Shown: piece by piece, positions 1 through 20,548 of the stretch
How the letters are laid out: each line of letters begins with the position of its first letter
Position numbering within the stretch: the first letter of the stretch is position 1
DNA from: a virus
DNA length: 20,548 nt
Direction: 5' to 3' (one strand)
IMG/VR virus record: IMGVR_UViG_3300047174_000192
Span: 1-20,548 of that record
Made by a program: the position numbers and the translations under genes
The notes under the pieces: generated by a model
What the model was told of the DNA's origin: nothing
The model's database searches: none
The model's input: the letters and a program-made list of their open reading frames with translations, nothing else

Positions 1-343
1 CTCGGGATAGCGAAGGCCCTCTAGCTTGGCGTCCTTTCGAGATGCAATCGGCGACATTATCCCGAACGGTTCCTAGAAATAGATGGTCGGGGTTGACACA
101 AGAGGGATTATCGCACTTATGGAGAACCCAAAGACCGTTCGGGATTGGTCCCTTAAACATTAAAAAAGATGCGTGATGGGCGCGATCCGAGTCGCCTCCA
201 AAATTAAAATAGCCGTACCCGTGGCCACGCTTGAGGCCCCCAAGCCAAAACCAACATCCGCTCGGGTGAACGCGATACATCGTGGAGAACTTGGCTTGTT
301 TAGTTGGGAATCGTTTCCATTTTGATGGATAACTATTAGCCAT
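1..343 (-). CDS. HNH homing-type endonuclease, 3' end beyond window
   Basis: The first 114 residues of an HNH endonuclease are visible; the C-terminus lies outside the window. The N-terminal half carries W31, W33 and a GYGYF stretch (42-46) typical of the small phage HNH_3-like enzymes. The paired H56-H57 precede the core LHKCDNPSCVNPDHL (74-88), which gives H75, C77, C82, N84 and H87 as metal and catalytic residues, followed by the usual GTVRDNVADCISKGR tail (91-105). The ATG at 343 has an AAGGA ribosome-binding site about 6 bases upstream and overlaps the stop of the preceding gene by 8 bases. The family makes nicks or breaks in DNA, and in phages acts as a free-standing homing or packaging-associated nuclease. 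Which of these roles applies cannot be told here. Confidence 0.88.
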   Translation of the reverse strand, partial: MANSYPSKWKRFPTKQAKFSTMYRVHPSGCWFWLGGLKRGHGYGYFNFGGDSDRAHHASFLMFKGPIPNGLWVLHKCDNPSCVNPDHLFLGTVRDNVADCISKGRQARGPSLSR

Positions 344-776
344 GTTGTTTCCTTGGGTTGGTTTCTAATTTGATTGTCTTGGCGTCCCGGCTCGCGAGCC
401 ATCCCTTCGCTTTTGCGGCCTTACGATGGCTTTCAATCCACCGATGACAATGATCGCATACGGCCTTCCAAAAACGTAGGTCATTAAGGAGCTTGCCTCT
501 TCCGCGAACATGATGAGGGTATGGAAGCGCCGGAGTTTTGATGTGAAGCTCCTTGCAAATAGCCGTGCAAAAGTGGTTCCTTGGATTCGCCCGCCATACG
601 GGCTTGAGCCTTCGGTAAAGTTCGTTTTCCTTTTTCTGCTTGTCGCTCACCGGGCGTATTCTTGACTGTGCTTTTCTTATCGAGGATCGAACCTTGTCAA
701 GGTCCCATGCCCATCGGTTGTTCTTCTCGTCCCAAATCGCGTCTTTATGCGGCTTGAGATGGCGTCGTGGTTTCAT
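336..776 (-). CDS. small HNH-like zinc-binding phage protein
   Basis: A basic 146-residue protein. The C-terminal half has a Cys/His arrangement: C70 and C74, then PHHVRGRGKLLND (87-99), then CDHCHRWIESH (107-117). This resembles the many phage proteins with a His-His-x-Arg-Gly-Arg segment followed by a C-x2-C-H-x-W-I segment, which are treated as degenerate or minimal HNH/zinc-ribbon nucleases. The N-terminal 60 residues are charged and probably not globular. The start is set by an ATGA overlap with the preceding gene. A longer reading from 869 would overlap that gene by about 97 bases and is not favoured. The function, nuclease or DNA-binding, is inferred from the motif only. Confidence 0.72.
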   Translation of the reverse strand: MKPRRHLKPHKDAIWDEKNNRWAWDLDKVRSSIRKAQSRIRPVSDKQKKENELYRRLKPVWRANPRNHFCTAICKELHIKTPALPYPHHVRGRGKLLNDLRFWKAVCDHCHRWIESHRKAAKAKGWLASRDAKTIKLETNPRKQHG

Positions 777-1153
777 AGGCCTAGGTTGAGTTGAGGCGTG
801 CACATGGCCCGATAGGAATCGACATCGTACCGCTTCACGAAGGCCCGGGCCAAGGCGTTGTTGATGCACCGATATTCAAAGATTGTACGTCCGGCGCTCG
901 CCTGGAATGTGCTTCGGCGCCAATTTCCGGTTTTTTCCACAAGACCCATCTTGGTGACCATCCGCCATGCCGAGCCTATGACGTTTCGGTCATCGTCGGT
1001 GAGGAGAAAATCGAAAGTCACTTCATCGGGCCAAAACACATCATTCTTCTCCGACGCCTTCTTGGCGATGAGAAGGCACGAAGTGAGGAGCTTCTTGTTT
1101 TTCCACGTAAACTGCCTAAGCGCGATCTCGTCTAAATGTTGATCGACGTTCAT
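773..1153 (-). CDS. phage protein with winged-helix-like C-terminal half
   Basis: 126 residues, no signal peptide or membrane segment. The segment around residues 53-95 (DDRNVIGSAWRMVTKMGLVEKTGNWR and on) has the look of a winged helix: a GSAWR helix, a MGLVEKTG turn, and an RRS..ASAGR wing. Similar small phage proteins contain the same pattern and are often annotated only as hypothetical. It starts in an ATGA overlap with the upstream small gene and ends in an ATGA overlap with the downstream HNH-like gene, so it is probably translated by coupling. A DNA-binding role is an inference from the predicted fold. Confidence 0.7.
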   Translation of the reverse strand: MNVDQHLDEIALRQFTWKNKKLLTSCLLIAKKASEKNDVFWPDEVTFDFLLTDDDRNVIGSAWRMVTKMGLVEKTGNWRRSTFQASAGRTIFEYRCINNALARAFVKRYDVDSYRAMCTPQLNLGL

Positions 1154-1367
1154 GGCTTGGAGGCAATTTCAATGGCCTTAAGGCCTATTCCATACATATA
1201 ACCGGTGGTCACAAGTAGGTTCTCTCGGGAGATTTCGTTATCCTCCTTGTAGCTCTCTTTATGAATCCGAGACCCCGCCTCGTAAGAAGAAAACTCACCC
1301 GGTAGATGGCAAATTTACGGTTGTAGGTGATATAGACTTGATAGAGGTCGGACAGGTTCTTTTTCAT
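1150..1367 (-). CDS. small conserved-looking protein split across two frames (frameshift)
   Basis: From the ATG at 1367 one frame reads about 24 plausible residues (MKKNLSDLYQVYITYNRKFA and on) and then turns into arginine-rich, non-protein-like sequence. The -1 frame, open from about 1317, reads as an acidic, well-composed protein (EFSSYEAGSRIHKESYKED and on). It ends at 1150 in an ATGA overlap with the next gene, exactly as neighbouring genes do. The second frame has no ATG, GTG or TTG after its upstream stop. The span is 218 bases, one short of 73 codons, so a single added base, for example in the GGG run near 1297-1299, would restore one 72-residue product. Possibilities are a sequencing indel, a real disabling mutation or programmed frameshifting. 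No function recognised. Confidence 0.55.
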
Positions 1368-1372
1368 GCGTT

Positions 1373-2098
1373 TTATTTGGGTAGGTTGGAGGCTAAAAAT
1401 TCGGGACACGCCTTAAGCTTAGCTCCGAGGCAAAACTCGCATTGCTTGCGCCCCGGTGTACGTTCGGCGTTCTCGTCGAGGGCGGATATGGACGCGATCT
1501 TTTCTTTCTCATAAAGAGATTGAAGCTCCTCCACCGAGAGCCGAGTGTGTTGGGAAATGGATTTATCGGGAAGCGCATAGTTGGGATGAATGAGAGCGAT
1601 TATGGCGCTTTTGATGGTGAATTTTTCCGAGTAGGCCACGAGCGTTCCCTCGGTAAACATCTGTTCATTTTGCTCAATCGGACCTACAGGAATGTATCCG
1701 GTATGAGGGTTGGGATGGCCGGTTTTGTAGTTGATGATGAGAGCGCGGCTATCGGGAGAGAAATAGACCACATCCGGTTTTGCGGAGAACAAAGGCTCTC
1801 CCTCGCCATCAAAGCCCCAAAACCGATTCTCGCGCACAACGGTAGAGCCCTCGAAATTGAGAAGCTCAACTAACCTACCTTCCTCAAAAACACACCGCTC
1901 ATAGCAAATGCGGTCGGAATGGTTGAGGGCATCCGGCGAGAGCTTGCCTTCGAGAGCCGCATGAATCTTATCACCACGAGAAGCTGCCCGCTTTTTGCCC
2001 ATTTCCTTGAGATGCTTTTCAAGGGCAAAGGAGCCGGAGCAAAGCATGATTCTAGGCATGGAGGATGCCGATGGGAGACCTTGGCGCTCGTCGATCAT
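1373..2098 (-). CDS. PD-(D/E)XK nuclease-like protein (Cas4/AddB/DUF2800 type)
   Basis: 241 residues. Motifs in order: PRIMLCSGSF (15-24), the opening typical of DUF2800/PDDEXK_1 phage proteins, with C20; RGDKIHAALEG (41-51) with H46; AKPDVVYF (106-113) with D109; ALIINYKTG (119-127); QNEQM (143-147); and a C-terminal cysteine group C220, C223, C231. C20 plus the last three match the layout of the 4Fe-4S-bearing Cas4/AddB nucleases. The residue expected to be the second catalytic Asp of the D-x-K motif is N123, so activity may be lost or altered. Position next to ERF suggests a role in recombination, such as end processing. It starts in an ATGA overlap with the upstream gene. Confidence 0.82.
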   Translation of the reverse strand: MIDERQGLPSASSMPRIMLCSGSFALEKHLKEMGKKRAASRGDKIHAALEGKLSPDALNHSDRICYERCVFEEGRLVELLNFEGSTVVRENRFWGFDGEGEPLFSAKPDVVYFSPDSRALIINYKTGHPNPHTGYIPVGPIEQNEQMFTEGTLVAYSEKFTIKSAIIALIHPNYALPDKSISQHTRLSVEELQSLYEKEKIASISALDENAERTPGRKQCEFCLGAKLKACPEFLASNLPK

Positions 2099-2562
2099 TT
2101 TTCGGGGAGGGCAAGGATGGTCTTCAAATTAGGCATCTCGCCGGGGTTGGATTTCATGAGAGCGGGAATGGCTACTTGTCCAAAAGTGCGCCCACCCCCA
2201 ATGACAAAATGTGCCAAAAATTCTTCCTCGAAAGTGGTGATTCCAACCTCGACGGCCTCAAGCTTGGCCTTGACGCAAAGGAGGAGCGCTCGCCATTTGG
2301 ACCGGCAGGCTTGCTCCCACGCTATATAGGACTTTTCCGGTGGAAGTGAAACGGTTTTGCCGTAACGCTTGGCCGTGGTAAAATCCTCTTTTCTAGGCAG
2401 GGGTAAGTCAAAACGAATAGCCCGATTCTTCACCTCGAACATCATCGTGGCTTTGTCCGGATCGTCCGCGATCATAAATCGCGTGCATCCATACTTATTG
2501 AGAATTTTACGAAGCTCCGCTTGGGACCTTTCGACGGAAACGGATGTGTCTTGCGCGTACAT
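2095..2562 (-). CDS. conserved phage protein of the recombination block
   Basis: 155 residues, soluble. It begins MYAQDTSVSVERSQAELRK, and has a middle part with an AWEQACRSKWRALLLCVKAKLEAVE helix region (81-105) and a GITTFEEEFLAHFVI segment (107-121). I recognise this as a widespread phage hypothetical family that usually sits near annealing proteins and Cas4-like nucleases, but know no assigned biochemical function. AGGGAT lies about 8 bases before the ATG at 2562, a good ribosome-binding site. The stop overlaps the next gene as ATGA. A role in recombination is suggested by context only. Confidence 0.8.
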   Translation of the reverse strand: MYAQDTSVSVERSQAELRKILNKYGCTRFMIADDPDKATMMFEVKNRAIRFDLPLPRKEDFTTAKRYGKTVSLPPEKSYIAWEQACRSKWRALLLCVKAKLEAVEVGITTFEEEFLAHFVIGGGRTFGQVAIPALMKSNPGEMPNLKTILALPEK

Positions 2563-2565
2563 AAA

Positions 2566-3144
2566 TTATCCCTGAACTCGAACGCCGGTTTTTTTGAAGG
2601 TCCGAACAAAAGGAATAGGGAATCCCGCCTTCGCCGCCGCAATGATGGCCGAACGCTTGGGCACAAGGTCAAATAGGCCCGGTGAAGCGGCAAATGCCTT
2701 CACGGGGTCTTCAACCTCGAAATCCCACACCTCGGTTGTTTGGATGCCCGCTCCCGCGCTTGCGTCCGAGATGGGTGCTCCGGTGGTGCGGGCCTCGGTC
2801 ACTTGTTGGGCACGTTGGCTTTCCACGTAGGCCGCAACAAGGGACTTGAGGCGTGATTCCTCGGCGAGGAGAGGGGCCGAAAACTCCTTGGCCGCGGCGT
2901 CGATGTCCTTGCCTAATTTGGTGATCGGAGCCTTGATATCAGCCCGCGATTCTTCCATGAATTTCAAGCATCCCTTGATAAGTCGGAGCACCGGATTACA
3001 TGCCTCCATGTCCTCCGGGCTTTTGATCGTAACAATTTTTTTGGCGGAATCCCGAGCCTGCTCAAGGAGCATGATGGCATCATCGGTGACGTTATACGTC
3101 ATCGTGGTGAGATTGGCCGCGAGGGCGAGTTTCTTATCGCTCAT
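2566..3144 (-). CDS. coiled-coil phage protein, partner of ERF annealing protein
   Basis: 192 residues from the ATG at 3144, which has AAGGAG 8 bases upstream and overlaps the ERF stop as ATGA; a longer reading from 3180 is not favoured. Residues about 20-120 are helical and charged (YNVTDDAIMLLEQA, then RLKSLVAAYVESQRAQQV), compatible with a coiled coil. The C-terminal part, VWDFEVEDPVKAF through PIPFVRTFKKTGVRV, matches a module seen in many phage proteins (DUF1351-like) encoded beside RecT/ERF genes, in which a predicted residue such as Trp-Asp-Phe-Glu precedes a PxxxxIR-type helix. The family is thought to assist recombination, though the mechanism is unknown to me. Confidence 0.78.
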   Translation of the reverse strand: MSDKKLALAANLTTMTYNVTDDAIMLLEQARDSAKKIVTIKSPEDMEACNPVLRLIKGCLKFMEESRADIKAPITKLGKDIDAAAKEFSAPLLAEESRLKSLVAAYVESQRAQQVTEARTTGAPISDASAGAGIQTTEVWDFEVEDPVKAFAASPGLFDLVPKRSAIIAAAKAGFPIPFVRTFKKTGVRVQG

Positions 3145-4142
3145 GATGCATTCTCCTTTTCCCATTCGGTCACAAACCAATTGATATTGATGATCGCCTT
3201 CTTGAGGGTTGACTCGTCTAGATCGGCAAGTGATTTAGCCTTTTTCGTGCGCTTGGCGTTGATCTTTTCTAGCGTCCACTCCTCCACGAGATTGTGCCGC
3301 TCGCAAAGCTTTCTAAACCCATCTAGTAGCCCTTCGGGAAAGTTTCCCGGCTCCATGGCGGAAGGCGAGGGATCGGGGTTCGGCTCGGGTGGGGCGGCTT
3401 CTTGTTTAGCCAATTCGAGCGTGGCCTCGTCGAGGGCGGCGCGGAGGGCCGCATCCTTGGCGTGCGCGGCTCGGCCTAGGGGCGAGTTAGGCTGTGAAAT
3501 TGGTTTCCATGTCCGAGCCCAATAAGCAAATCCCTTCGGCGCGTTGGCGTAGATTTCGCCGAGCTTTTTACCCTTAAACTCGTAGGTTTTGTCCTCATTG
3601 TTGCCGAAGGGAAGATGCCACGCCACTTCTCGCCACGGAAGCGCGGGCTTGGGAGCTTTTGGAGCGGGTTCCGGGCTATCGACTTCGGGATCGGTCATGA
3701 AGTCCTTAGTCGGGATCGTAAACATTTGCAAGATGGCGTACTTGAGCGCCACGGACATGGCCTTATTGCTGGATTTATCCCCCGCATCCATGCCTTCTCC
3801 TACCACTTCGCATTCAATCTTGGAGCCGTCCTCCGCATGGAAGGCAAACCGGATTTTGAGGATGCGATAGATGAGGAGGCCACCGTTCTTGGTTGCCCGT
3901 TCCTCGCGGGCTTGTTCGAGCACGGTGGTGGTGATGAAGATTCCGCTCTTAACAAATAAAGGGTGAATCTCATTAATCACATCGTCGATGCCTCGGTAGG
4001 CGTAGCCGCCCTGACTAGAATTTTGGCGATTCTTGTCGATAGCATCGATGTCCTTTTGGACGGCGAGAATGGCGCGGTTGATGGCCGGGTTCATGTAGGT
4101 ATTGATCGCCGTTTCCACGGCTTCTTTGGATGGAGTTTCCAT
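3141..4142 (-). CDS. erf: ERF-family single-strand annealing recombinase
   Basis: 333 residues. The ERF core is clear in residues about 20-150: GYAYRGIDDVINEIHPLFVKSG (46-67) and EGMDAGDKSSNKAMSVALKYAILQMF (116-141), the two signature blocks of the superfamily. ERF proteins form rings that anneal complementary single strands in phage recombination and genome circularisation. A Pro/Ala-rich linker (about 152-166) leads to a C-terminal segment (WHLPFG...KGKKLGEIYANAPKGFAYWA) that resembles the small exoX-like C-terminal module (inference). No clear ribosome-binding site precedes the ATG at 4142, 9 bases after the previous stop, so a start further in, such as M17, is possible. Confidence 0.9.
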   Translation of the reverse strand: METPSKEAVETAINTYMNPAINRAILAVQKDIDAIDKNRQNSSQGGYAYRGIDDVINEIHPLFVKSGIFITTTVLEQAREERATKNGGLLIYRILKIRFAFHAEDGSKIECEVVGEGMDAGDKSSNKAMSVALKYAILQMFTIPTKDFMTDPEVDSPEPAPKAPKPALPWREVAWHLPFGNNEDKTYEFKGKKLGEIYANAPKGFAYWARTWKPISQPNSPLGRAAHAKDAALRAALDEATLELAKQEAAPPEPNPDPSPSAMEPGNFPEGLLDGFRKLCERHNLVEEWTLEKINAKRTKKAKSLADLDESTLKKAIININWFVTEWEKENAS

Positions 4143-4151
4143 TGGGGATGC

Positions 4152-4424
4152 CTAGCTAACCGGAGTAAGGCTTTGGTATTGATCCAAACCCCACTTCATG
4201 AAGTAATACTTTCCGCCGCGTCCTCGTTTGGCCAAGGAATTGCGACGGAACATGCCCGGAAACCGCTCGGGATGAAACTTCACCTCTTTGCGGAAGTCGT
4301 GCATATTGATTTTGTGACCCTTGGCTTGTAGGTATGCGAGTGCTCCTTTGAAATCAAAGTCGCCCGTTACCACGTTATTTACCGGCGTGGAAATGGGTTG
4401 GGTCTTTTTGGGGGTTTTCTTCAT
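4152..4424 (-). CDS. small basic phage protein, unknown
   Basis: 90 residues, strongly basic, beginning MKKTPKKTQPISTP, with a middle block ALAYLQAKGHKINMHDFRKEVKFHPERFP and a GRGGKYYFMKWGLDQY C-terminus. The pattern of a short helix-turn-helix followed by a basic, aromatic tail would suit a DNA-binding accessory or excisionase-like protein, but I do not recognise a family. AAGGAG lies 11 bases before the ATG, inside the stop region of the upstream gene. Confidence 0.65.
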   Translation of the reverse strand: MKKTPKKTQPISTPVNNVVTGDFDFKGALAYLQAKGHKINMHDFRKEVKFHPERFPGMFRRNSLAKRGRGGKYYFMKWGLDQYQSLTPVS

Positions 4425-4432
4425 AAAATGAG

Positions 4433-4828
4433 TTACTCCTTGTGCCTGCGAAGGCGGTCGAGGAGCTTTGTGAGTTCCTTTTCCGCGCCTAAAATGTCGT
4501 TGGGATAGACGCGATAAATAGCCCGAATCTTCCCTTCGAGATGCACGGTATATTGCATGAGCGGAGAACTTGTTCGGCAGCTCTCCCGAAAAAACTTCTC
4601 GAAAGTCGAGACAATGCCGCAGCGGAGCTTGGATAGTTGATTCTCGGATGCCTCGCTTGATTTCTCATTCGGCACAAGGCCGGTAGGCACATCGATAGCC
4701 GCAATCTTGTCGGTCACGACCACTTCCGCGTCGGAGAAGGCCGGATTGACTTCTTTAAGGTAGGCGAGGATCGGGTCGAGCAACCCACGCATGTCGTTTT
4801 GCTCGCCGATGGTTAGAGTGTCGCTCAT
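4433..4828 (-). CDS. small phage protein, unknown
   Basis: 131 residues, soluble. It starts MSDTLTIGEQNDMRGLLD in an ATGA overlap with the preceding gene. The C-terminal 50 residues are basic and helical (FEKFFRESCRTSSPLMQYTV..., then LTKLLDRLRRHKE). No domain recognised. It belongs to the same coupled block as the genes on both sides. Confidence 0.65.
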   Translation of the reverse strand: MSDTLTIGEQNDMRGLLDPILAYLKEVNPAFSDAEVVVTDKIAAIDVPTGLVPNEKSSEASENQLSKLRCGIVSTFEKFFRESCRTSSPLMQYTVHLEGKIRAIYRVYPNDILGAEKELTKLLDRLRRHKE

Positions 4829-5034
4829 GACTTGGGCTCCTTGGATGGCGGCTCGGTTGGCATTTCGGAAAGTGGCTTTTCCAACATGGATTGAACAAAG
4901 GTCATGATCTGTGCAAACATGACCATGGCCATTGTCGGATTGGCCTCTTGTTCCTTCGTTATGGCGGGCTCGATATTTGTACCGAGTTCCACGCCGCCTT
5001 CGTTGTCTTCAAGGGTAATGGTGAGTTTTGGCAT
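4825..5034 (-). CDS. small acidic phage protein, unknown
   Basis: 69 residues from the ATG at 5034: MPKLTITLEDNEGGVELG..., followed by a methionine-rich helix (TMAMVMFAQIMTFVQSMLEK) and a Pro/Glu-rich tail. The opening is typical of short phage proteins with a beta-strand start. The ATG sits 5 bases after the upstream stop without a visible ribosome-binding site, and the stop overlaps the next gene as ATGA, both consistent with coupling. Function unknown. Confidence 0.6.
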   Translation of the reverse strand: MPKLTITLEDNEGGVELGTNIEPAITKEQEANPTMAMVMFAQIMTFVQSMLEKPLSEMPTEPPSKEPKS

Positions 5035-5039
5035 GGTCG

Positions 5040-5570
5040 TTAGGAAAGAGAGATGAAGCCGTGTGCCACGTCCCAACGGATGTGGCCGAGATGGGCGCCT
5101 TGCTTTTCGAGCTTGAGAAACTCCTCCACGGTCATGCCCTCTTTGTAGAGTTCAAAGACCTTGTGGGAACCGGACTCTTTGCGCTTCGGGTTCTCCGTGA
5201 CCTTGAGGTGAATTTTCTTGGTTACGTCGATACGGTGGCGCTTGCCTTCCGATTTCTCGGTCTTAGCGGCGACGATCTTTTTCTTCGTCTCAACCTTGGT
5301 AGGCTCGGGATTTTCGGTCTTGGCAATGCCTTTTTTCTCCGCGTTGCGGTAGGCGGTGAAAAGGGAAATAGAAATGTCTTTCGGCATGGAAGTCGCCTTT
5401 ACCTTTCGACCGCTCTTGGCGCTCACGTAGCCAAGGAATGTACCGCCGTCAAAAGCGGGAGCTACGCCTTGTTTGAAGCACTCCTCGAAAAGAGAGGCGC
5501 CGTCCCATTTGCGAGGCTTGTGCATCCGGATGGTGGCCTTGGGTTTGGTTTCGTCTATAGTCGTTGTCAT
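5040..5570 (-). CDS. phage protein with conserved C-terminal helical module
   Basis: 176 residues. The ATG at 5570 is preferred because AGGA lies 8 bases before it; a TTG at 5603 lacks this. The N-terminal part is Lys/Thr-rich. Residues about 30-70 resemble a small domain (LFEECFKQGVAPAFDGGTF), then comes a long Lys/Glu linker. The last about 45 residues (HKVFELYKEGMTVEEFL...HIRWDVAHGFISL) match a short module common in small phage proteins: Leu-Tyr-x-x-Gly-Met-Thr-Val, then W-D-x-x-H-G-F-I. It is the first gene of its block, behind a T-tract motif. Role unknown; a DNA-binding module is plausible. Confidence 0.72.
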   Translation of the reverse strand: MTTTIDETKPKATIRMHKPRKWDGASLFEECFKQGVAPAFDGGTFLGYVSAKSGRKVKATSMPKDISISLFTAYRNAEKKGIAKTENPEPTKVETKKKIVAAKTEKSEGKRHRIDVTKKIHLKVTENPKRKESGSHKVFELYKEGMTVEEFLKLEKQGAHLGHIRWDVAHGFISLS

Positions 5571-5609
5571 GGTGTTTTTCCTAATGGTTGATAATGTGCC
5601 CAAACTTGG

Positions 5610-5630
5610 TTAAAAAGCAACAAAAAACTT
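5610..5630 (-). repeat. 21-bp operon-boundary repeat, copy 1 (T-tract motif)
   Basis: These 21 bases are identical to 14734-14754. Read on the minus strand the core is GTTTTTTGTTGC followed by a TTTTTAA tract. It overlaps the stop codon of the gene at 5629-6573 and lies about 40 bases before the ATG at 5570. A TTGCTT hexamer could serve as -35 with CATTAT about 18 bases on, but the -10 is weak. Promoter or operator activity is inferred from position. Confidence 0.6.
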
Positions 5631-6573
5631 AATCGGCCTCCAAATCAAACCCGTGTTTTTTAAGGAGCGCGAGCGTGGCTTGCATCATGGCGACGGGGTC
5701 TTCCGCAGCTAAAGTCGGAAAATATCCGACGTAGAGATCGCCCTCATCGACGGCGCCGTGGCCTCCGAAGTTATCGAATCCCATGTTGAATGCCGCTTGG
5801 AACATAAATCTAGACTCGGCATCCTGGGCGCATGTAAAGAAGGCTAGAGCGTCAAGATCAAGCGGTTGATTAGCCGCTTTGATTTGGACTTCGATCATCA
5901 CGGTTGTCCGACGGCGAAAACCGGAGGAAATCCACACTTCGGCCCGGCGACCGGTGCGCTCAATAGCATCAATCGCCGCCATTGTTACCGCGCCTCGCGC
6001 TTGAGCTTGTTCGTGAGAATGGCCCATGGCCCCCGCATCCACATCAAGCATTACCTTGACGATGCGGTTGGAGGGCGAGAATTTGGCCTCGGATTCTTGC
6101 TTGTGGATCATGTTTTCGGGTTCACCCGAAAGAAACCGGCCCACATCCGGATAACCGCCATAGACCTCGTAAACTTGCTCTATCTTGGGTGCAAATTTAC
6201 GAAGCCGGTCGTCGATGCGACCCGATATTTCCGCACACTTAGCCGTCATCTCGGGCCATCCGAAACGAGCTTTCCTCATGGCATCATCCCATGTGGCGAA
6301 TATTTTCCCGCAGCTTTTGGCAGTAATGACGGTTCCGCGAGGGCTATCCGAATCGTTTTCTCGAAGCCTATCTTTTTCAATGTAGTTGAGAAATTCGGGA
6401 AGAGTGAATCGGTATACAATTCCGGAGTCGGTAACTTCTCCAACCTCATCCTTGATAGTCCACGCCTCGGGATAGACCGGTGGTACAATGCGCTTATCCC
6501 TTCCTGGAGGGGCATTGCTCGCCGATAAATCCAAGGCGGATTCCGCTTCCTTAATGATGTCGATGTCGTTCAT
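5629..6573 (-). CDS. partner of MoxR-like ATPase (DUF7192-like, possible VWA-like)
   Basis: 314 residues, soluble. Residues 138-155 (YGGYPDVGRFLSGEPENM) match a signature of phage and actinobacterial proteins encoded next to AAA ATPases, annotated DUF7192. The segment IVKVMLDVDAG (171-181) followed by alternating helices and strands (AAIDAIERTGRRAEVWIS, 199-216) looks like a Rossmann or VWA-like core, which would suit the known MoxR-VWA pairing, although no complete MIDAS (DxSxS) motif is visible. The start overlaps the ATPase stop as TAATG, so the two are made together. Likely a client-binding or assembly partner (inference). Confidence 0.7.
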   Translation of the reverse strand: MNDIDIIKEAESALDLSASNAPPGRDKRIVPPVYPEAWTIKDEVGEVTDSGIVYRFTLPEFLNYIEKDRLRENDSDSPRGTVITAKSCGKIFATWDDAMRKARFGWPEMTAKCAEISGRIDDRLRKFAPKIEQVYEVYGGYPDVGRFLSGEPENMIHKQESEAKFSPSNRIVKVMLDVDAGAMGHSHEQAQARGAVTMAAIDAIERTGRRAEVWISSGFRRRTTVMIEVQIKAANQPLDLDALAFFTCAQDAESRFMFQAAFNMGFDNFGGHGAVDEGDLYVGYFPTLAAEDPVAMMQATLALLKKHGFDLEAD

Positions 6574-7991: not shown

Positions 7992-7997
7992 GCCGTC

Positions 7998-8025
7998 AAA
8001 ATAACACAGCATTTACAAAGTACAA
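7998..8025 (-). promoter_or_regulatory. promoter for MoxR-like ATPase operon, near leaderless
   Basis: On the minus strand: -35 TTGTAC (8025-8020), 16-base spacer, -10 TATTTT (8003-7998), then 6 bases and ATG (7991). The upstream T-tract TTTTTTGTTG is shared with the plus-strand promoter at 17469, as is TTTGTA just inside the spacer. Transcription would begin at or next to the start codon. Confidence 0.6.
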
Positions 8026-8034
8026 CAAAAAACA

Positions 8035-10682: not shown

Positions 10683-10689
10683 AAATAAA

Positions 10690-11160: not shown

Positions 11161-11194
11161 TGGGAAGGCAAGGTTCGGTAACGATGCAATAAAA

Positions 11195-11236: not shown

Positions 11237-11255
11237 AATCACCTTATTCTCCGAA

Positions 11256-14121: not shown

Positions 14122-14199
14122 AGAAAAAAATTTTAACTGTGAATAACGTTATAGGGTCGTAGCCCTGCGAGTGGTTCGCGTAGTGTCTCCAAAATAGTC

Positions 14200-14709: not shown

Positions 14710-14733
14710 GATGGATAGTCTCCTTAAATTTGC

Positions 14734-14754
14734 TTAAAAAGCAACAAAAAACTT
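14734..14754 (-). repeat. 21-bp operon-boundary repeat, copy 2 (T-tract motif)
   Basis: Identical over 21 bases to 5610-5630 and directly abutting the stop of the primase-helicase (14755). TTGCTT and AAGCAA flank a central TTT/AAA, making a short palindrome at 14730-14746. It lies upstream of the AAGGAG of the membrane protein gene. Promoter or operator function is inferred. Confidence 0.6.
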
Positions 14755-16497
14755 CTACGAGTTCCGGATGAACGGCTCAATTTGAGTGATGCGCAATGTC
14801 TCAAAATCATATTTGCAAAGAATTTTTAAGCCCGAGCCTATCTCCGATCCTTTCAAAACTTGGAGGCACATCTCGCTCTTTTTATCCGGATTGCGCGAGG
14901 CTCCAAGGAGGAGAGTCGAGCTATTCTCAATGGCTCCGGAGTCCTTGGCATCATTGATCGACATCTCACCGAAGGCTCGTTCCTTGTCCCGATTGACTTG
15001 GGAAGCCAAGACAATGATGACGTTGTATTTTTTGGCAAGGTATTTGAGTCCTTCGGCGATGTCGGTGAACCGCTCGTAGCGGGATTGTTTTCCTTCGCCA
15101 CGGATAAGCTGAATATAATCGATGAGGACAAGGTTTGGCTTGCGGCCAAATTTGAGTTCGCTTCTCCGGAGGATCGACTCTAGGGCCTTAAGCGTGACCG
15201 CCTCGGTGCAAAAGAGAACATGATCGAGGCCGCTTTGGGAAAAGTCGATGCGATCCCGGCGCATATAGACCTCTTGAATCGTTTTTCGCGAGTGGCCGGT
15301 GCCGCTTTGTAAGGTGCGCTCGAAGGCCTTCCGATCCGAAAGCTCAAGGTGGAAGTAGAGCGTGGCAAGATGCGGATGGGAGAGCGCGATGTTGGTGAGG
15401 AGCGAGGTCTTGCCCACACCGGTTTCCGCGATGATCGAGACAACCTCGCCGGGAACTAAAACAGCTTCTTGGAGGAGCGACATCCATCGGCCCAAGTGGA
15501 GGCAATTCGCGGTGTCGCGATGCATGGATTCCAAGTAGAGTTTTTCAAGATCGGCCATCGACTTGAGTGGGAGCGGCTCACCTTTATACAGTGGCTCTAC
15601 CGCATCCCGAAGCCGTAGGCATTCGCTCAAAAGCTCCGCGTCCGACATGCCCTCGGTGTGCTCAGAAATGTCCTTGGCGGGCGCCGGAACTTTGACGATG
15701 CGGATGGTGCGGGCTACGGGCTCTAGGCTCGTGCGAACCATGTTCACGTGCTCGCTTCCGGCGGGCGGCTTGCCGGGGAGGTCGTTGTCACCGCAAATGA
15801 TGATGTCTTTGCCGATCAAATGCTCGTTGTAGGAGTCAAGCCATTTGCCCGCCCCCCCTACATTTGTCGTTGCTACTAGGCCCGCGGCTCGGAGGGTGTC
15901 CGCGTCTTTCTCGCCTTCCACCACCCAAACTTCGGTGGCACGACGAACTTCGGGAAGAGCGTAAAGGACACGCTCCACGCCATCCATTGACCATGAGTAG
16001 CAGCCATCAGGCCTAACCGCTCGTTGCTTAAAATTCTTTGGTTCATACCGTACCGCCTCGTAAATGAGCTTTCCATTGGCATCGTGGTAGGGGTAGGCCT
16101 TGACGATCACGGGATCGGGATTTGGGTCGGCGAACGGATTTTCGATTTGCGGCGTTGATTGGGGCTTCACGTAGGTAGATACCTTTTTCTCGGAAAAATG
16201 CGTCCTAGGCCTATCCTCGTTCGATTTTGGCCTATCCTTGGAAAGAGTCCGAAGATATTCCGAGGCCGTCTTTCCATCAAACTTGGCCAAGAGATCGACC
16301 ACATCCCCCCCGCCACATCCGGCGCGGCAAATCCAAATATCGGCGTCCTTGGCGATGTCGAGCGACGGCTTCTTGTCGGAGTGAAACGGGCACAAACACG
16401 AGTCATTTTTGCCTCGGCCTACGAGGATGGAAACCCCACACCCCTCAAGCACCGAGCGCACGGTTTGCTTCGATTTAATCTCCTCGGAAACCGTCAT
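14755..16497 (-). CDS. fused primase-helicase (CHC2 zinc finger, TOPRIM, DnaB-like)
   Basis: 580 residues, T7 gp4-like in layout. Zinc finger: C36, H39, C57, C61 in CLCPFHSDKKPSL and ICRAGCGG. TOPRIM domain: VVEGEKDAD (192-200) and IIICGDNDLPG (232-242, D237/D239 metal ligands). Helicase domain: Walker A ETGVGKTS (358-365), HLELSDRKAFERTL (383-396), Walker B LVLIDYIQL (456-464), and sensor VLASQVNRD (496-504). It unwinds DNA at the fork and makes primers. The start is an ATGA overlap with the DUF1376 gene's stop. It ends just before the T-tract repeat. Confidence 0.93.
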   Translation of the reverse strand: MTVSEEIKSKQTVRSVLEGCGVSILVGRGKNDSCLCPFHSDKKPSLDIAKDADIWICRAGCGGGDVVDLLAKFDGKTASEYLRTLSKDRPKSNEDRPRTHFSEKKVSTYVKPQSTPQIENPFADPNPDPVIVKAYPYHDANGKLIYEAVRYEPKNFKQRAVRPDGCYSWSMDGVERVLYALPEVRRATEVWVVEGEKDADTLRAAGLVATTNVGGAGKWLDSYNEHLIGKDIIICGDNDLPGKPPAGSEHVNMVRTSLEPVARTIRIVKVPAPAKDISEHTEGMSDAELLSECLRLRDAVEPLYKGEPLPLKSMADLEKLYLESMHRDTANCLHLGRWMSLLQEAVLVPGEVVSIIAETGVGKTSLLTNIALSHPHLATLYFHLELSDRKAFERTLQSGTGHSRKTIQEVYMRRDRIDFSQSGLDHVLFCTEAVTLKALESILRRSELKFGRKPNLVLIDYIQLIRGEGKQSRYERFTDIAEGLKYLAKKYNVIIVLASQVNRDKERAFGEMSINDAKDSGAIENSSTLLLGASRNPDKKSEMCLQVLKGSEIGSGLKILCKYDFETLRITQIEPFIRNS

Positions 16498-17249
16498 ATA
16501 CCACTACCGTTCAAGTGCTTATTGTCATACTTGCCTTCCAAAATACTTACCACGGCATCATCGCTTCGGATAAACCAATCGATGTTAGCCTTCCACTTTC
16601 GGTCGTTCCTTCCGAGGAGGAAATTGGATATTTTTGCCCTCTCAAGCGCCGCTCGCCAATTCGAGCGCCAATACTCCGATTCAAGCCGAACCTTGAGATG
16701 AGATGCCCGCTTATCGGTAAGCGCCACACATTTCGGGAAGCTTGTGGCATTCCATTCGGTGACGATCTCCGCCGCCCCGGTTGAGAGATCGGAGGCATCG
16801 TCATCCGCAAACGGATTATCCGAAGAAGGGGTAGGGGTAGTATTATATGAAGATGAAGAATGAAGACCATGCTTTTTGCTTCGCCGTAGCTTATGCACCT
16901 TCGATGCTAGTGCATGCCGTCTAGCCTCACCTTTTTCTCCCTCCCATCCTCCGAGGGCGTTTTGGGAGCGAGATTGTTTAAAGGCCTTTTGCTTTTGGCG
17001 CGTTTTTTCGAGTCGATGGTTTTGCAAACCACCATTTCCATCCGATGCAAACTTATGCATGATCGATGCAAGTGCATCTTCGGTGCATCCGGCCAAGATG
17101 CAAAGCCTTTTAGGATCAAGTGGTAATGTTCCCTTATCCCATTGATGGCATAGGAGCCTAATGTAGGCCCCGGTTTCTTCCGCCGTGAACGAGGCGGTGC
17201 CGTTGAGAAAATCTCCGGCGTAGAATTGAAAAGCGGGAGGCTTATTCAC
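16494..17249 (-). CDS. DUF1376-type replication protein
   Basis: 251 residues from the GTG at 17249, which has GAGG 6 bases upstream; a longer start at 17264 is possible. The N-terminus PPAFQFYAGDFLNGTASFTAEETGAYIRLLCHQWDKG matches the DUF1376 (YdaU-like) winged-helix domain. A Ser/Thr/Asp-rich linker (about 130-145) leads to the C-terminal ESEYWRSNWRAALERA...NDRKWKANIDWFIRSD...ILEGKYDN module seen in many phage replication initiators or helicase loaders. Directly upstream of the primase-helicase, it probably helps load the helicase at the origin (inference from family and position). Confidence 0.85.
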   Translation of the reverse strand: MNKPPAFQFYAGDFLNGTASFTAEETGAYIRLLCHQWDKGTLPLDPKRLCILAGCTEDALASIMHKFASDGNGGLQNHRLEKTRQKQKAFKQSRSQNALGGWEGEKGEARRHALASKVHKLRRSKKHGLHSSSSYNTTPTPSSDNPFADDDASDLSTGAAEIVTEWNATSFPKCVALTDKRASHLKVRLESEYWRSNWRAALERAKISNFLLGRNDRKWKANIDWFIRSDDAVVSILEGKYDNKHLNGSGI

Positions 17250-17373
17250 AAACACCCTCATCACCTAAAGCGTGAGCACCGATGGTGACCATGGAGACGC
17301 GGCCCCCGTAAAGGGTTGAAACTCCCACCGCCGATGCCCACGCTTTAGATGTTGAAGATGCCGTCTTTTTCAT
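17242..17373 (-). CDS. possible 43-residue leader or early peptide
   Basis: ATG at 17373, stop at 17242, overlapping the GTG start of the DUF1376 gene by 8 bases, which is the local style of coupling. The peptide reads MKKTASSTSKAWASAVG... with little charge after the start and no known motif. No ribosome-binding site is visible and an inverted repeat (17265-17348) runs through it, so it may be a structured leader rather than a gene. Confidence 0.4.
   Translation of the reverse strand: MKKTASSTSKAWASAVGVSTLYGGRVSMVTIGAHALGDEGVCE
17265..17348. repeat. imperfect inverted repeat inside the leader region
   Basis: CTAAAGCGTG (17265-17274) pairs exactly with CACGCTTTAG (17339-17348). Extended arms of 21 bases (17265-17285 and 17328-17348) match at about 17 positions, with about 42 bases between. 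It sits between the divergent promoter region and the DUF1376 start. It could be a stem in the minus-strand message, an operator or part of an origin. Confidence 0.55.
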
Positions 17374-17468
17374 TTGGTTCGGCGAGGTTGCCGTAGGCCG
17401 AAAGCTTAAGCAACTATTTTTCAAAAAATACTCATTTTTACTCTCAAAAAGTTTTTTGTTCTTTTTTG

Positions 17469-17496
17469 TTGCACTTTGTACGGCCTATCGTATGAT
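17469..17496 (+). promoter_or_regulatory. strong sigma-70-like promoter for right-hand early genes
   Basis: -35 TTGCAC (17469-17474), 16-base spacer, -10 TATGAT (17491-17496), preceded by two T-tracts (TTTTTTG at 17452-17458 and 17462-17468). Only 9 bases separate the -10 from the ATG at 17506, with no ribosome-binding site, so the message would be nearly leaderless. The divergent side (17374-17468) is AT-rich with no clear minus-strand promoter. Confidence 0.65.
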
Positions 17497-17505
17497 GTCG
17501 TCCTT

Positions 17506-17820
17506 ATGAGTCGCAAAATTACCGAGCAAGTGGCCTCCGCATTCTTGAATCGCCGCCCGAAAAGCATTGGCAATTCGAGCACCGATGGTCACGTGCTTCT
17601 TCTCCATGGAAATCGCATTGCCGAGTGGCATGGCGATGATCTTTGGATCACCAATGCCGGATGGTCGAGCAACACGACAAAGGAACGCTTAAATGGTCTT
17701 CCCGGTGTGCGTATCCACCAAAAAGATTTTGCGTGGTTTCTCAATGGAAAACAATGGGACGGTTCATGGACTTCCGTTTCACTTTGGAACGCCGGAAAGT
17801 CCTCACTTTCTCTTGCCTAA
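17506..17820 (+). CDS. conserved small phage protein
   Basis: 104 residues from the ATG at 17506; the in-frame TTG at 17476 is inside the promoter. It matches a common family of phage hypotheticals with SRKITEQVASAFLN at the start, HGNRIAEW (34-41), WITNAGW (47-53), TKERLNGLPGV (58-68) and W.LNG..W.G.W near the end. These are known as short proteins of early or mid clusters with no assigned function. First gene of the right-hand operon. Confidence 0.82.
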   Translation: MSRKITEQVASAFLNRRPKSIGNSSTDGHVLLLHGNRIAEWHGDDLWITNAGWSSNTTKERLNGLPGVRIHQKDFAWFLNGKQWDGSWTSVSLWNAGKSSLSLA

Positions 17821-17823
17821 AAA

Positions 17824-18060
17824 ATGAAATACTACTACTCCGCATGGCGCGACATTAGCGCCGTCAATATAGCGGGCGATTGGATCGCCCTTCGCAATAC
17901 CGAACGCATCGACACGTCCGATTGGGAGCAACTCTCCATCGAGGACGCGCCGACGGAAGCCATCGAGGCCCTCGTAGGCCGAGTGACGCTTCCCGCTGAG
18001 GATATTTTCCCCGAGCTTGCCAAGGCCGAGCGCACACCCTACGTGGCCCTTGCCGCCTAA
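17824..18060 (+). CDS. small phage protein, unknown
   Basis: 78 residues, acidic, with an N-terminal MKYYYSAWRD and a compact body (GDWIALRNTERIDTSDWEQLS). The ATG is 3 bases after the upstream stop with no ribosome-binding site, so coupling is likely. No family recognised. Confidence 0.68.
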   Translation: MKYYYSAWRDISAVNIAGDWIALRNTERIDTSDWEQLSIEDAPTEAIEALVGRVTLPAEDIFPELAKAERTPYVALAA

Positions 18061-18097
18061 ATTTCAAAAACCCCAAACCAAAAGGAAAGTAGACAGC

Positions 18098-18565
18098 ATG
18101 AACAACGAGGAACAAAAACCAAACATCGGCGTCGAGGCGGCTCTTGCCATCGATCTCTCGGTTACTATCAAACGAGTTGGCCTAGGCCAATACTTGTTCA
18201 AGGTGGTGGTGGCCCAAGGACCGGAAGGAAAGACGCTTAACGATGAGAAAATTTGCTCAACTCTTATTGAAGCGAGCGAACGACTCGACATCGTGACCCA
18301 CATCCGAATCGACTCCGCCAACCAAAAAGTCACGGCTCGGCTTAACGTGACCGGAACCCACAAGGATTCCCACGAGAAGCAATCCGTGGACGAGACGGAG
18401 ACCTTCGATCACCCAATCCCGGCGCTTGTTTGGGTCATGTCCAAGCAAGCATCGCTCCTTCGCCAACTTTCCAATGGCGAAGAGTGCGATTGCCCGAATT
18501 GCACGAAGGAACGGGCGGAAAAGGTTAAGCCCGAGATCAAGCTCGGTGACGAGCCGAAGGCCTAA
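18098..18565 (+). CDS. phage protein with C-terminal CxCxxC, unknown
   Basis: 155 residues; a longer reading from 18017 is not used because AAGGAA lies upstream of this ATG. A beta-rich middle (QYLFKVVVAQG, then HIRIDSANQKVTARLNVTG) suggests a small sandwich or barrel fold. C-terminal ECDCPNC (about 128-134) is a knuckle-like zinc-binding candidate. Position in the early plus-strand block. No family assignment. Confidence 0.72.
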   Translation: MNNEEQKPNIGVEAALAIDLSVTIKRVGLGQYLFKVVVAQGPEGKTLNDEKICSTLIEASERLDIVTHIRIDSANQKVTARLNVTGTHKDSHEKQSVDETETFDHPIPALVWVMSKQASLLRQLSNGEECDCPNCTKERAEKVKPEIKLGDEPKA

Positions 18566-18577
18566 CGACCGATCAAA

Positions 18578-18628
18578 ATGGCCCGGAGCGCGAGACAAGG
18601 CGCACGGGCCGAGAAAGCAAATTTATGA
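18578..18628 (+). CDS. possible 16-residue peptide in intercistronic hairpin
   Basis: ATG at 18578 reads MARSARQGARAEKANL and stops in an ATGA overlap with the next gene's start, as real genes here do. It has no ribosome-binding site and coincides with a hairpin. It may couple translation across the gap, or be chance. Confidence 0.2.
   Translation: MARSARQGARAEKANL
18580..18610 (+). other. GC-rich stem-loop between genes
   Basis: GGCCCG (18580-18585) pairs with CGGGCC (18605-18610), and an inner GCGC pair (18588-18591 with 18600-18603) extends the stem across a small bulge, leaving an 8-base loop. There is no T-run after it, so it is not a standard terminator. An mRNA-stabilising or processing stem is more likely. 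Confidence 0.6.
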
Positions 18629-18861
18629 ACGAAAAACCCGAAAAGAAAGCACTCGATATTTTTAAGTTGGATGTAGGCATCGAGCACATCGAAGGAAAGG
18701 GCTACAAGTGCCGCATCCAATGCAACGCCAACGGAAACATCTTTGACGAAACCGACATGTATACTTCCCTCGAAAGTTGCGCCCGAGCGGCACAACAAGG
18801 ATTTGCGGAAATAGCGGAGATGGTCTCCAAAATGCCCAAGCAACACGTTAATGCGATCTAA
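18625..18861 (+). CDS. small phage protein, unknown
   Basis: 78 residues. The charged start MNEKPEKKALDIFKLDV leads into two strands (YKCRIQCNANGNIFDET) and a C-terminal helix (ESCARAAQQGFAEIAEMVSK), a beta-beta-alpha-like arrangement. It follows the GC-rich stem. The stop is overlapped by 11 bases by the next gene's ATG. No family recognised. Confidence 0.7.
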   Translation: MNEKPEKKALDIFKLDVGIEHIEGKGYKCRIQCNANGNIFDETDMYTSLESCARAAQQGFAEIAEMVSKMPKQHVNAI

Positions 18862-19282
18862 CTTCCACCATCTCGACAAGTACCGTGTACTCGATGGCCG
18901 CATGGGGTCAACCCCGAGTGATGGGCGATATGGGTTCTTCTTGATTCCGGTGCGCGACATTTCAAAAAAGCCTCACGACACTTGGGTTCTCTATTGCCTA
19001 GCGAGCGCCGCGGATGAGCCCGAGGCCGAGGGATGGGAACACGTCTCACTTAGAGTGGAGAGCGCAACCGATCCCAAGGCCGGTAGGCTCCCAACTTGGG
19101 AAGAGATGTGTCTAGCTAAAAAACTCTTTTTTGAGCCTAACGAGTGCGTGGTGCAATTCCACCCGCCGGAGAGCGAGTACGTGAACGCGCATCCCAACGT
19201 GCTCCACCTTTGGCGCAATACCCAATTCGATTTCAAAACCCCGCCCACTCTCTTGATTGGGCCTAAACCAGAAAGCAAGTAA
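18851..19282 (+). CDS. DUF7694-like phage protein
   Basis: 143 residues with the conserved block of this family: GWEHVSLRVE (61-70), LPTWEEMCLAKKLFFEPNECVVQFHPPESEYVNAHPNVLHLWR (79-121) and a TPPTLLIG ending. The family is common in phages, is short, and has no assigned reaction; the invariant HPPxSEYVNxHP...LHLWR stretch suggests a specific binding or catalytic site. It overlaps the preceding gene by 11 bases. Confidence 0.86.
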   Translation: MRSNFHHLDKYRVLDGRMGSTPSDGRYGFFLIPVRDISKKPHDTWVLYCLASAADEPEAEGWEHVSLRVESATDPKAGRLPTWEEMCLAKKLFFEPNECVVQFHPPESEYVNAHPNVLHLWRNTQFDFKTPPTLLIGPKPESK

Positions 19283-19287
19283 GCACC

Positions 19288-19551
19288 ATGACTACCATTG
19301 AAACCAACAATAAACCACAAGCTTTTGTCGCCGTAATGCGGGCTCGCAAACCCCTCACGAAAGAAGAAGTCACCGGTTTCCATATCCTCGTTACCAACGG
19401 CGGGGAAAAGCACGCCAAGTTCGGCACAATCCAAGAGTCGCTCCGTCGTCATCCGGAGCACATCGACATCGACGAGCCGCAAGTTATGGAACTCTCTCGG
19501 GAAGACCTTACCAAGATGCTCGGCGCTCTCGATGGCGCCGAAGTGTCCTAG
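19288..19551 (+). CDS. small acidic phage protein, unknown
   Basis: 87 residues, with HILVTNGGEKHAKFGTIQESL in the middle and an acidic C-terminus (LSREDLTKMLGALDGAEVS). The ATG is 5 bases after the upstream stop, with only a weak AGT-type signal before it. No family recognised. Confidence 0.65.
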   Translation: MTTIETNNKPQAFVAVMRARKPLTKEEVTGFHILVTNGGEKHAKFGTIQESLRRHPEHIDIDEPQVMELSREDLTKMLGALDGAEVS

Positions 19552-19578
19552 GCCTAAAACAAAAAAGGAAATACAGCT

Positions 19579-19857
19579 ATGAAAGGCACACAAGCCAATG
19601 AAGGGCATACCATGGTCGTGGGAACTCGGGTTGAGTTCTCCAAAATCGGTTGCCCGCAAAATGTGGGTAATCCCGAGGATGTTATTTTCCTCGTGAAACC
19701 CGCCAAACACATGGGAGGAAATCCCATCGCTCTAATGCTCCCGCCGAAAAACGCCGCGGAGCTTGCTCACGCCATCCTCGCCGCCGCCGGAAACGTCGCG
19801 CCGTCCGATTGCATGGTAAGCCTCGACGATGAGATCGAGGAACAAACAAAGAACTAA
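19579..19857 (+). CDS. small phage protein, unknown
   Basis: 92 residues with a good ribosome-binding site (AAGGAA about 8 bases before the ATG). The body has VVGTRVEFSKIG, FLVKPAKHMGG and a helix NAAELAHAILAAAG, a small mixed fold. No family recognised. It lies in the continuous plus-strand block. Confidence 0.7.
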   Translation: MKGTQANEGHTMVVGTRVEFSKIGCPQNVGNPEDVIFLVKPAKHMGGNPIALMLPPKNAAELAHAILAAAGNVAPSDCMVSLDDEIEEQTKN

Positions 19858-19861
19858 AATT

Positions 19862-20170
19862 ATGGGTTACTACATCCCCGGCCTACAGAACAAAAACAAA
19901 GCCGATCAAATCATCTCAAAGTGGCCCGACGCCATCCTGCTTGGCTCCGCGCCAAGTTGGGATGCCGTGCCGAGCGACAAGGCCATCATTTGCGTGGTGG
20001 ATAACGGGCCATTTGAAGCCGCGGGCTACGCTTTTAGCGAGCGAGAACTTGCCGTCTTCAACCACCATGGCGGTCGATCCATCAACGATGATCGTCGGCC
20101 TAGAAAATGGCTCCTCATGGACAAGCCAACTGTGGAGAAGATCACGGGCTATGCGGAGGATCACCGATGA
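19862..20170 (+). CDS. small phage protein, unknown
   Basis: 102 residues beginning MGYYIPGLQNKNKADQIISK. A Rossmann-like opening (AILLGSAPSWDAV and AIICVVDNGPFEAAGYAFSEREL) and a DDRRPRKWLLMDKP segment hint at a nucleotide-binding or hydrolase-type fold, but no motif settles it. It starts 4 bases after the preceding stop and ends in ATGA with the next gene. Confidence 0.7.
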   Translation: MGYYIPGLQNKNKADQIISKWPDAILLGSAPSWDAVPSDKAIICVVDNGPFEAAGYAFSERELAVFNHHGGRSINDDRRPRKWLLMDKPTVEKITGYAEDHR

Positions 20171-20517
20171 GGCCTATCTACCGAAATTGGGACGAGCAAG
20201 ACAACGCGGCGGCGAGGGCGGAGGGTGGGGCCAACAACCACATCTTCCGGCCCACCGAGACGAGCGCATGGTATGTGAGCTACTCGCCTCGAAGCCAATT
20301 CGTCTCACCCGAGAATCCGCAACCCGAGACGCTTTTGGGCCACTACGAAAATTGGCCTAAAAACCCCAAGGACCTTTGCCTCGCCGGAGACCACCGCAAG
20401 CCAATCTCCGAGGCCTACGAGGAAGGCGGCGAAGAAGCCGTCTTGGCCTATTTTAAATCCCAACCCGACATCACACCGGAAGCGGTCAAGTTTGTCCGCA
20501 AAATGATCAATCCATGA
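20167..20517 (+). CDS. small phage protein, unknown
   Basis: 116 residues with a strong ribosome-binding site, GGAGG 7 bases before the ATG, inside the upstream gene. Central part WYVSYSPRSQFVSPENPQPETLLGHYENW, and a C-terminal helix SQPDITPEAVKFVRKM. No family recognised. Confidence 0.7.
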   Translation: MRPIYRNWDEQDNAAARAEGGANNHIFRPTETSAWYVSYSPRSQFVSPENPQPETLLGHYENWPKNPKDLCLAGDHRKPISEAYEEGGEEAVLAYFKSQPDITPEAVKFVRKMINP

Positions 20518-20548
20518 GCAACATCCTCACCCGCATCAACGCCGCCAA
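20514..20548 (+). CDS. start of a further plus-strand gene, truncated
   Basis: ATGA overlap with the preceding stop, followed by 10 in-frame codons (MSNILTRINAA). The remainder is outside the window, so only the start can be supported. Confidence 0.55.
   Translation, partial: MSNILTRINAA

What the first reader, a model, noticed from the sequence alone, without database searches (positions are those of the whole stretch)
1..20548. Trinucleotide CTG/CAG (symmetric CWG) is nearly absent, in all frames and both strands
By eye, 11221-13650 (2430 bases) holds 8 CTG+CAG against about 76 expected, and 8761-9720 holds 3 against about 30. The avoidance is not codon use alone: all 11 Trp codons of the large terminase are preceded by a base other than C, although C-ending codons are frequent, and intergenic DNA is also poor in it. 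CWG is its own complement, so a symmetric 3-base target is a simple explanation: restriction avoidance, or methylation at CWG followed by deamination.
Basis: seen in the sequence. Interest (0 to 1): 0.85.

Follow-up and report, generated by a model that had tools for sequence, protein, structure and literature searches.

The report
Phage genome purged of CTG/CAG
A bacterial virus has removed about six in seven of the three-letter words CTG/CAG expected in its sequenced 20 kb, in every reading frame and on both strands, most likely because each copy exposes its DNA to a cutting or nicking enzyme with an unusually short target; the enzyme is still unknown.

Summary
The window has 83 CTG+CAG where dinucleotide shuffles give 518 +/- 19. 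A synonymous-codon shuffle leaves the deficit at codon phases 1 and 2 (47 seen, 272 expected), so it is not codon use. CCG/CGG is normal.

CTG and CAG are reverse complements, i.e. one duplex word. A symmetric 'CWG' target is therefore possible but not shown.

Deamination is excluded as the main cause. The word is lost at whichever codon position has a synonym, often at the middle T/A.

The closest relative found, a syntenic 68.8-kb phage contig (terminase 64% identical), has nearly normal CTG (observed/expected 0.90). Of its 262 CTG/CAG in 13 orthologues the window keeps 5 (1.9%), against 19-32% for control words. A two-gene block, 13641-14720, is near normal (0.72), probably a recent import.

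The same genome lacks 11 of 29 testable 6-bp palindromes, against 2 of 1746 non-palindromes. This is classical type II restriction avoidance and makes a restriction-type agent for CTG the best reading.

That agent, the host and the DNA chemistry are unidentified. The window encodes a TET/JBP dioxygenase with a TET-associated glycosyltransferase, but the relative does too without purging CTG.

The parts
1..13640 (.). main CTG/CAG-poor segment: replication, modification, recombination and terminase genes
   Evidence: observed/expected 0.13-0.16 per segment
13641..14720 (.). block with near-normal CTG/CAG (19 sites): two small minus-strand genes, 13648-14121 and 14200-14709; probable recent import
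   Evidence: observed/expected 0.72; Poisson P 8e-9 against the rest; 13648-14121 has no phage match; 14200-14709 weak PHROG spanin match E 0.006
14721..20548 (.). most depleted segment, not homologous to the sister phage apart from a weak helicase match: primase-helicase, DnaD-like gene, small plus-strand genes
   Evidence: observed/expected 0.09; tblastn against the sister
8763..9791 (-). TET/JBP 2-oxoglutarate dioxygenase (DNA base oxidation)
   Evidence: PF12851 E 2.5e-23; H237, D239, H288, R302 invariant in alignments
8035..8769 (-). TET-associated glycosyltransferase (TAGT-like)
   Evidence: PF20691 E 0.0019, below cut-off; homologues directly downstream of TET in other phages, invariant DD pair D82 D83
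9966..10742 (-). ParB-like protein upstream of TET; same order in the sister and in HTVC112P
   Evidence: phrog_620 E 1.4e-17; synteny
9691..9969 (-). 92-aa protein of unknown function between ParB and TET
   Evidence: open frame; no Pfam or PHROG match
11256..11810 (+). terminase small subunit
   Evidence: phrog_6299 E 1.2e-9
11810..13651 (+). terminase large subunit (64% identical to the sister)
   Evidence: tblastn to annotated terminases; sister
14755..16497 (-). own primase-helicase (CHC2 zinc finger, Toprim, DnaB_C); the sister has a DnaB helicase without a primase domain at this point
   Evidence: Pfam; sister helicase
336..869 (-). HNH endonuclease, shared with the sister (49%)
   Evidence: phrog_740 E 3.2e-7
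6573..7988 (-). CobS/MoxR-like AAA ATPase, paired with DUF7192 gene 5629-6573
   Evidence: PF00004 E 5.1e-11, phrog_249, PF23822; 55-56% and 48% identical to the sister

Best explanation
The duplex word 5'-CTG-3'/5'-CAG-3' is a recognition word of a DNA-damaging, restriction-type activity that this phage lineage meets in its hosts. Each copy costs a little, for example through inefficient cutting or nicking at a 3-bp site, and purifying selection has removed about 87% of copies outside the imported block by any synonymous route. Shown: depletion at DNA level in all frames and both orientations, loss by selection-like substitutions, lineage specificity, and simultaneous elimination of 6-bp palindromes. 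Inferred: that the agent is a nuclease, that it belongs to the host, and that the 3-bp word is its whole target.
For: Not codon use. Not one mutational process: the replaced base is whichever one is synonymous, and in orthologues CAG becomes CCG or CGG at phase 1 while CTG becomes TTG, GTG or ATG at phase 2. The sister phage is nearly normal (0.90) and only 5 of its 262 CTG/CAG survive in the window, against 19-32% of control words. No long flanking motif explains it: all eight one-sided contexts stay at 0.10-0.28, with mild heterogeneity over 16 contexts, p 0.011. The same genome lacks 11 of 29 six-bp palindromes with expectation of 5 or more, against 2 of 1746 non-palindromes, the signature of type II restriction avoidance in non-temperate phages (PMC6286503). 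Three-base nicking enzymes exist, Nt.CviPII (CCD) and R/AG in chloroviruses (PMC7019647), and so do CNG and TCTG cytosine methyltransferases (PMC9636781). Implied scaled cost is about 2-3 per site, so selection is weaker per site than against the absent palindromes.
Against: I recall no orthodox restriction enzyme with a 3-bp target. A fully active enzyme would still find 64 sites in 19.5 kb, so sparing 13% makes sense only if each site is a weak hazard. No host is known and no matching enzyme was found. Among 319 other phage loci of at least 4 kb none shows uniform depletion of this strength.
Confidence: 0.47

Rival explanations
1. Avoidance driven by the phage's own DNA modification. CTG/CAG, or CWG, is the word at which its modification pathway (a methyltransferase in the missing part of the genome, or thymine oxidation by the TET/JBP enzyme, then TAGT glycosylation) places bulky bases. 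Copies are selected against because the modified word is costly or is the target of modification-dependent host nucleases.
For: An apparently intact TET/JBP enzyme and a TAGT lie in the window. CNG and TCTG cytosine methyltransferases exist. Modification-dependent nucleases have 1-4 base words, for example RlaI VmCW and MspJI mCNNR (PMC3874153). L045, a TET phage with a C5-methyltransferase gene, has a weaker but context-uniform CTG depletion of 0.62.
Against: The sister has ParB-TET-TAGT too, with CTG at 0.90. Hundreds of TET or TAGT phage loci have normal CTG (mean 1.03). No methyltransferase gene is in the window and no C5-methyltransferase in the sister. L045's deficit shrinks to 92 vs 120 after codon shuffling in ten genes.
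Confidence: 0.17
2. Self-protection by sequence avoidance: the phage encodes a nuclease or nickase that degrades host DNA at CTG/CAG, and its own genome has been emptied of the word.
For: Phage HNH proteins can be nickases with 3-5 base words (phage Gamma HNH; PMC8845596). An HNH gene lies at 336-869.
Against: That HNH gene is shared with the sister (49%), which does not avoid CTG. No other nuclease candidate is specific to the window; the rest of the genome is unseen.
Confidence: 0.1
3. Primase effect: CTG is the initiation trinucleotide of gammaproteobacterial DnaG or of the phage's own primase, and excess start sites are selected against.
For: DnaG of E. coli, P. aeruginosa and Y. pestis primes at CTG (PMC5204125). 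The window carries its own primase-helicase whereas the sister has a DnaB helicase without a primase domain.
Against: T7, whose primase starts at GTC, does not avoid GTC/GAC: observed/expected 0.96. From general knowledge, E. coli does not avoid CTG either. Depletion here is strand-symmetric.
Confidence: 0.07
4. Methylation of CWG followed by C-to-T deamination, or another mutational bias.
For: TAG/CTA and TTG/CAA are mildly enriched. C-to-T is the commonest single replacement at phase 2 (15 of 30).
Against: Sites are lost at the W base when that base is the degenerate one (NCA and NCT before G at 2% and 4%), and C before TG is replaced mainly by A and G relative to control. Leu CTG of the sister became CTC or CTT more often than TTG or CTA (21 vs 8).
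Confidence: 0.03
5. CRISPR PAM avoidance: CTG or CAG is the PAM of a prevalent host CRISPR system.
For: PAM depletion in phages is documented (PMC4246573).
Against: Published effects are small (group medians of about -0.4 log2 or less), whereas here log2 is about -2.6. The same genome also avoids 6-bp palindromes, which points to restriction.
Confidence: 0.05

Closest known systems
Restriction-site avoidance in virulent phage genomes (orthodox type II R-M)
   Same: Selection-like loss of a short DNA word by synonymous change on both strands, in a genome that also lacks many 6-bp palindromes
   Different: The word has 3 bases, is not a strict palindrome, and is reduced to about 13-16% rather than to zero
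Three-base nicking endonucleases of chloroviruses, Nt.CviPII (CCD) and R/AG
   Same: Enzymes with 3-bp words do exist
   Different: Other words, algal viruses; no homologue found or sought at sequence level here
Short-site cytosine-5 methyltransferases (CNG, TCTG, CC; PMC9636781)
   Same: CNG and TCTG overlap the avoided word
   Different: They methylate rather than remove sites; CCG/CGG is not avoided here, so the avoided set is not CNG
Phage TET/JBP-TAGT DNA hypermodification cassettes
   Same: ParB-TET-TAGT gene order present in the window and its sister
   Different: The cassette is common in phages with normal CTG, so it does not by itself explain the purge
PAM depletion in phages (CRISPR)
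   Same: A short word depleted on both strands
   Different: Known cases are far weaker

Membership tests
Restriction-type site avoidance | word depleted beyond composition and codon use | tested here: met
Restriction-type site avoidance | depletion absent in relatives not under the pressure | tested here: met
   sister at 0.90; 1.9% retention against 19-32% for controls
Restriction-type site avoidance | palindromic word of at least 4 bp | tested here: not met
   the word is CTG/CAG, symmetric only if the middle W is degenerate; residual flanking contexts 0.10-0.28
Restriction-type site avoidance | a matching host enzyme | not testable with these tools
   host unknown; no prokaryotic relative of the window identified as host
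C-methylation followed by deamination | sites lost specifically through C-to-T or G-to-A | tested here: not met
TET/JBP dioxygenases | PF12851 domain with HxD...H...R residues | tested here: met
TAGT glycosyltransferases | PF20691 match above cut-off | tested here: not met
   18.6 bits against a cut-off of 27.5; nevertheless clear homology to proteins encoded next to TET in other phages
Phage hypermodification at CTG | modified base at the word | not testable with these tools
   needs virion DNA
Primase-site avoidance | phages with a known primase word avoid that word | tested here: not met
   T7 GTC/GAC 0.96

The most novel reading that the evidence does not exclude
A bacterial restriction, nicking or modification-dependent system with a 3-base-pair target (CTG/CAG, possibly symmetric CWG) exists and is common enough in this phage's hosts to have reshaped its genome at about 430 sites in 20 kb. 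The extreme form is that the word is the phage's own TET-TAGT hypermodification site and is punished by modification-dependent nucleases.
Probability: 0.35. Interest if true: 0.85.

Novelty: new variant of a known kind. Interest (0 to 1): 0.62.

Why it matters
Site avoidance is normally seen for 4-8 bp restriction sites. A context-broad purge of a 3-bp word implies a selective agent with an unusually short target, which a host must tolerate about every 40 bases of its own DNA. Finding that agent would reveal either a new kind of defence or a cost of phage DNA hypermodification. The nearly normal sister phage and the un-purged imported block make the question testable.

Tried and rejected
TET/TAGT as sufficient cause: rejected, since the sister and hundreds of TET or TAGT loci have normal CTG. 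A longer degenerate motif: not supported by flanks, although GCTGT is spared somewhat (0.42) and ACTGA is absent. RNA-level selection: rejected, since CTG and CAG are both depleted on the sense strand. Codon use: rejected. Deamination: rejected. Primase site: unsupported. Other loci with low CTG: L318 (0.30), L167 and L199 are context-dependent (CCTG/CTGG or neighbours) and resemble ordinary restriction avoidance; only L045 (0.62) is uniform, and weak. CTC/GAG depletion in other phages is context-dependent, strongest at CTCC in L129 and L124, possibly Shine-Dalgarno-like, and is not a parallel. Host identification failed: no close relative beyond one contig in viral contigs; TET hits in bacterial assemblies are unrelated phages. 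No tRNA or Rfam hit.

Full report
What is there. The window is a 20,548-base virus record, linear and probably a fragment. It is a tailed-phage genome with terminase, ERF recombinase, primase-helicase, an AAA ATPase paired with DUF7192, and a ParB / TET-JBP dioxygenase / TAGT glycosyltransferase cassette.

The depletion. CTG occurs 41 times and CAG 42 times, against 268.5 and 248.5 expected. Dinucleotide shuffles give 518 +/- 19. CCG/CGG is normal at 1.06. Because CTG is the reverse complement of CAG, this is one duplex word; symmetry is possible, not proven. In 32 genes, synonymous codon shuffling predicts 272 occurrences outside codon phase 0 and 47 are seen; both CTG and CAG are depleted on the sense strand. 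Leu codons: CTG 8 of 552; Gln: CAG 26 of 195. Non-coding DNA is also poor (5 in 1220 bases).

Selection, not deamination. In fourfold NCN codons followed by G, third-base A and T fall to 2% and 4%, against roughly 15-24% before other bases; this removes the middle W of the word. In fourfold codons before TG, C falls to 6% (45% before other T-codons) while A rises from 17 to 43%, G from 13 to 27%, and T stays at 24-26%. Loss by whichever base is free is what selection against the word predicts. Deamination predicts loss at C only.

Lineage and time. Among 319 other phage loci of at least 4 kb (relatives of the TET, AAA and TAGT genes plus reference phages), mean observed/expected is 1.03, s.d. 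0.15. The nearest relative, IMG/VR contig 3300027994_000002 (68.8 kb), is collinear over at least 15 genes (terminase 64%, PRA-PH 61%, AAA 55-56%, TET 53%) and has 0.90 overall. In 9.5 kb of codon-aligned orthologues it has 262 CTG/CAG, of which the window keeps 5 (1.9%); ten control words are kept at 19-32%. So the purge belongs to the window's lineage. The segment 14721-20548, which is not homologous to the sister apart from a weak helicase match, is equally or more depleted (0.09), so the pressure acts on modules of different origin. By contrast 13641-14720 carries 19 sites at 0.72, most simply a recent import not yet adapted.

Strength. Comparison with the sister's codon choice gives scaled selection of about 2 (Gln) to 2.9 (Leu) per site. 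This assumes equilibrium and is rough. The cost per site is small but real.

Restriction context. The same window lacks 11 of 29 testable six-base palindromes (CGGCCG, GCCGGC, CGATCG, CTCGAG, GGATCC, TTCGAA, GAGCTC, CGCGCG, GCGCGC, GGGCCC, GAATTC), while 2 of 1746 non-palindromes are absent. The sister avoids several of them too. PMC6286503 reports that such avoidance concerns mostly orthodox type II systems and non-temperate phages. The phage is therefore under restriction pressure, which raises the probability that CTG is a restriction-type word as well. Three-base enzymes have precedents among chlorovirus nickases and methyltransferases. That the palindromes are at zero while CTG is at 13-16% suggests a weaker hazard per site, such as nicking or an inefficient or occasional activity. 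This step is inference.

Why not the TET cassette alone. The TET enzyme looks catalytically intact and the TAGT is related to proteins encoded directly downstream of TET in other phages. But the sister has the same order with a divergent TAGT plus two further genes, and large numbers of TET or TAGT phages have normal CTG. Modification could still matter if the word, set by an unseen methyltransferase, is the modified site; modification-dependent nucleases do use very short words. I keep this as the main rival.

Other rivals. Primase-site avoidance has no support from T7 (GTC/GAC 0.96), although gammaproteobacterial DnaG does prime at CTG and the window, unlike the sister at this point, carries its own primase-helicase. 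PAM depletion as published is far weaker.

Limits. The host, the rest of the genome and the DNA chemistry are unknown. The gene calls in small ORFs are mine. The library of papers is open-access only, so absence of a prior report is weak evidence of novelty.

Noticed in passing
window, whole: Eleven 6-bp palindromes with expectation of at least 5 are completely absent while 4-bp palindromes are near normal (0.92): strong type II restriction avoidance, partly shared with the sister.
   Followed up: yes
window 13641-14720: Two small genes with near-normal CTG density and lower GC in the second gene; probably a recently imported block.
   Followed up: partly
window 14755-16497 and L323:14014-15309: The window encodes a primase-helicase whereas the sister phage has a DnaB helicase without a primase domain: exchange of replication module.
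   Followed up: partly
L324:2305-3656: In the sister, TET and TAGT are followed by two genes that look by eye like a sugar kinase and a nucleotidyltransferase, absent from the window; possibly supply of an activated sugar (no Pfam match).
   Followed up: partly
L020:941-2650: A 569-aa open frame that appears to join a TET/JBP domain to a TAGT-like domain in one protein (read from the sequence; not tested with profiles).
   Followed up: no
L328:8213-11266: Terminase large subunit of a distant relative seems to be interrupted in frame by an intein-like insert (terminase matches split at about residue 206-211).
   Followed up: no
L318 and L045: Two related TET phage contigs with lower CTG: L318 at 0.30 with CCTG and CTGG almost absent plus zero CATG, CCGG, ACGT and TCGA; L045 at 0.62, even across contexts, with a C5-methyltransferase gene.
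   Followed up: partly
L124, L129, L137: CTC/GAG is depleted to about 0.3, most strongly CTCC in L124 and L129; may be avoidance of Shine-Dalgarno-like GGAG rather than of a DNA target.
   Followed up: partly
L073: ACG/CGT is almost absent outside codon phase 0 (3 against 49 expected) in an AT-rich TET phage contig.
   Followed up: no
sister contig G021, 1-32000 versus 32001-68846: CTG observed/expected is about 0.98 in the structural half and about 0.83 in the early/replication half: a mild asymmetry, unexplained.
   Followed up: no
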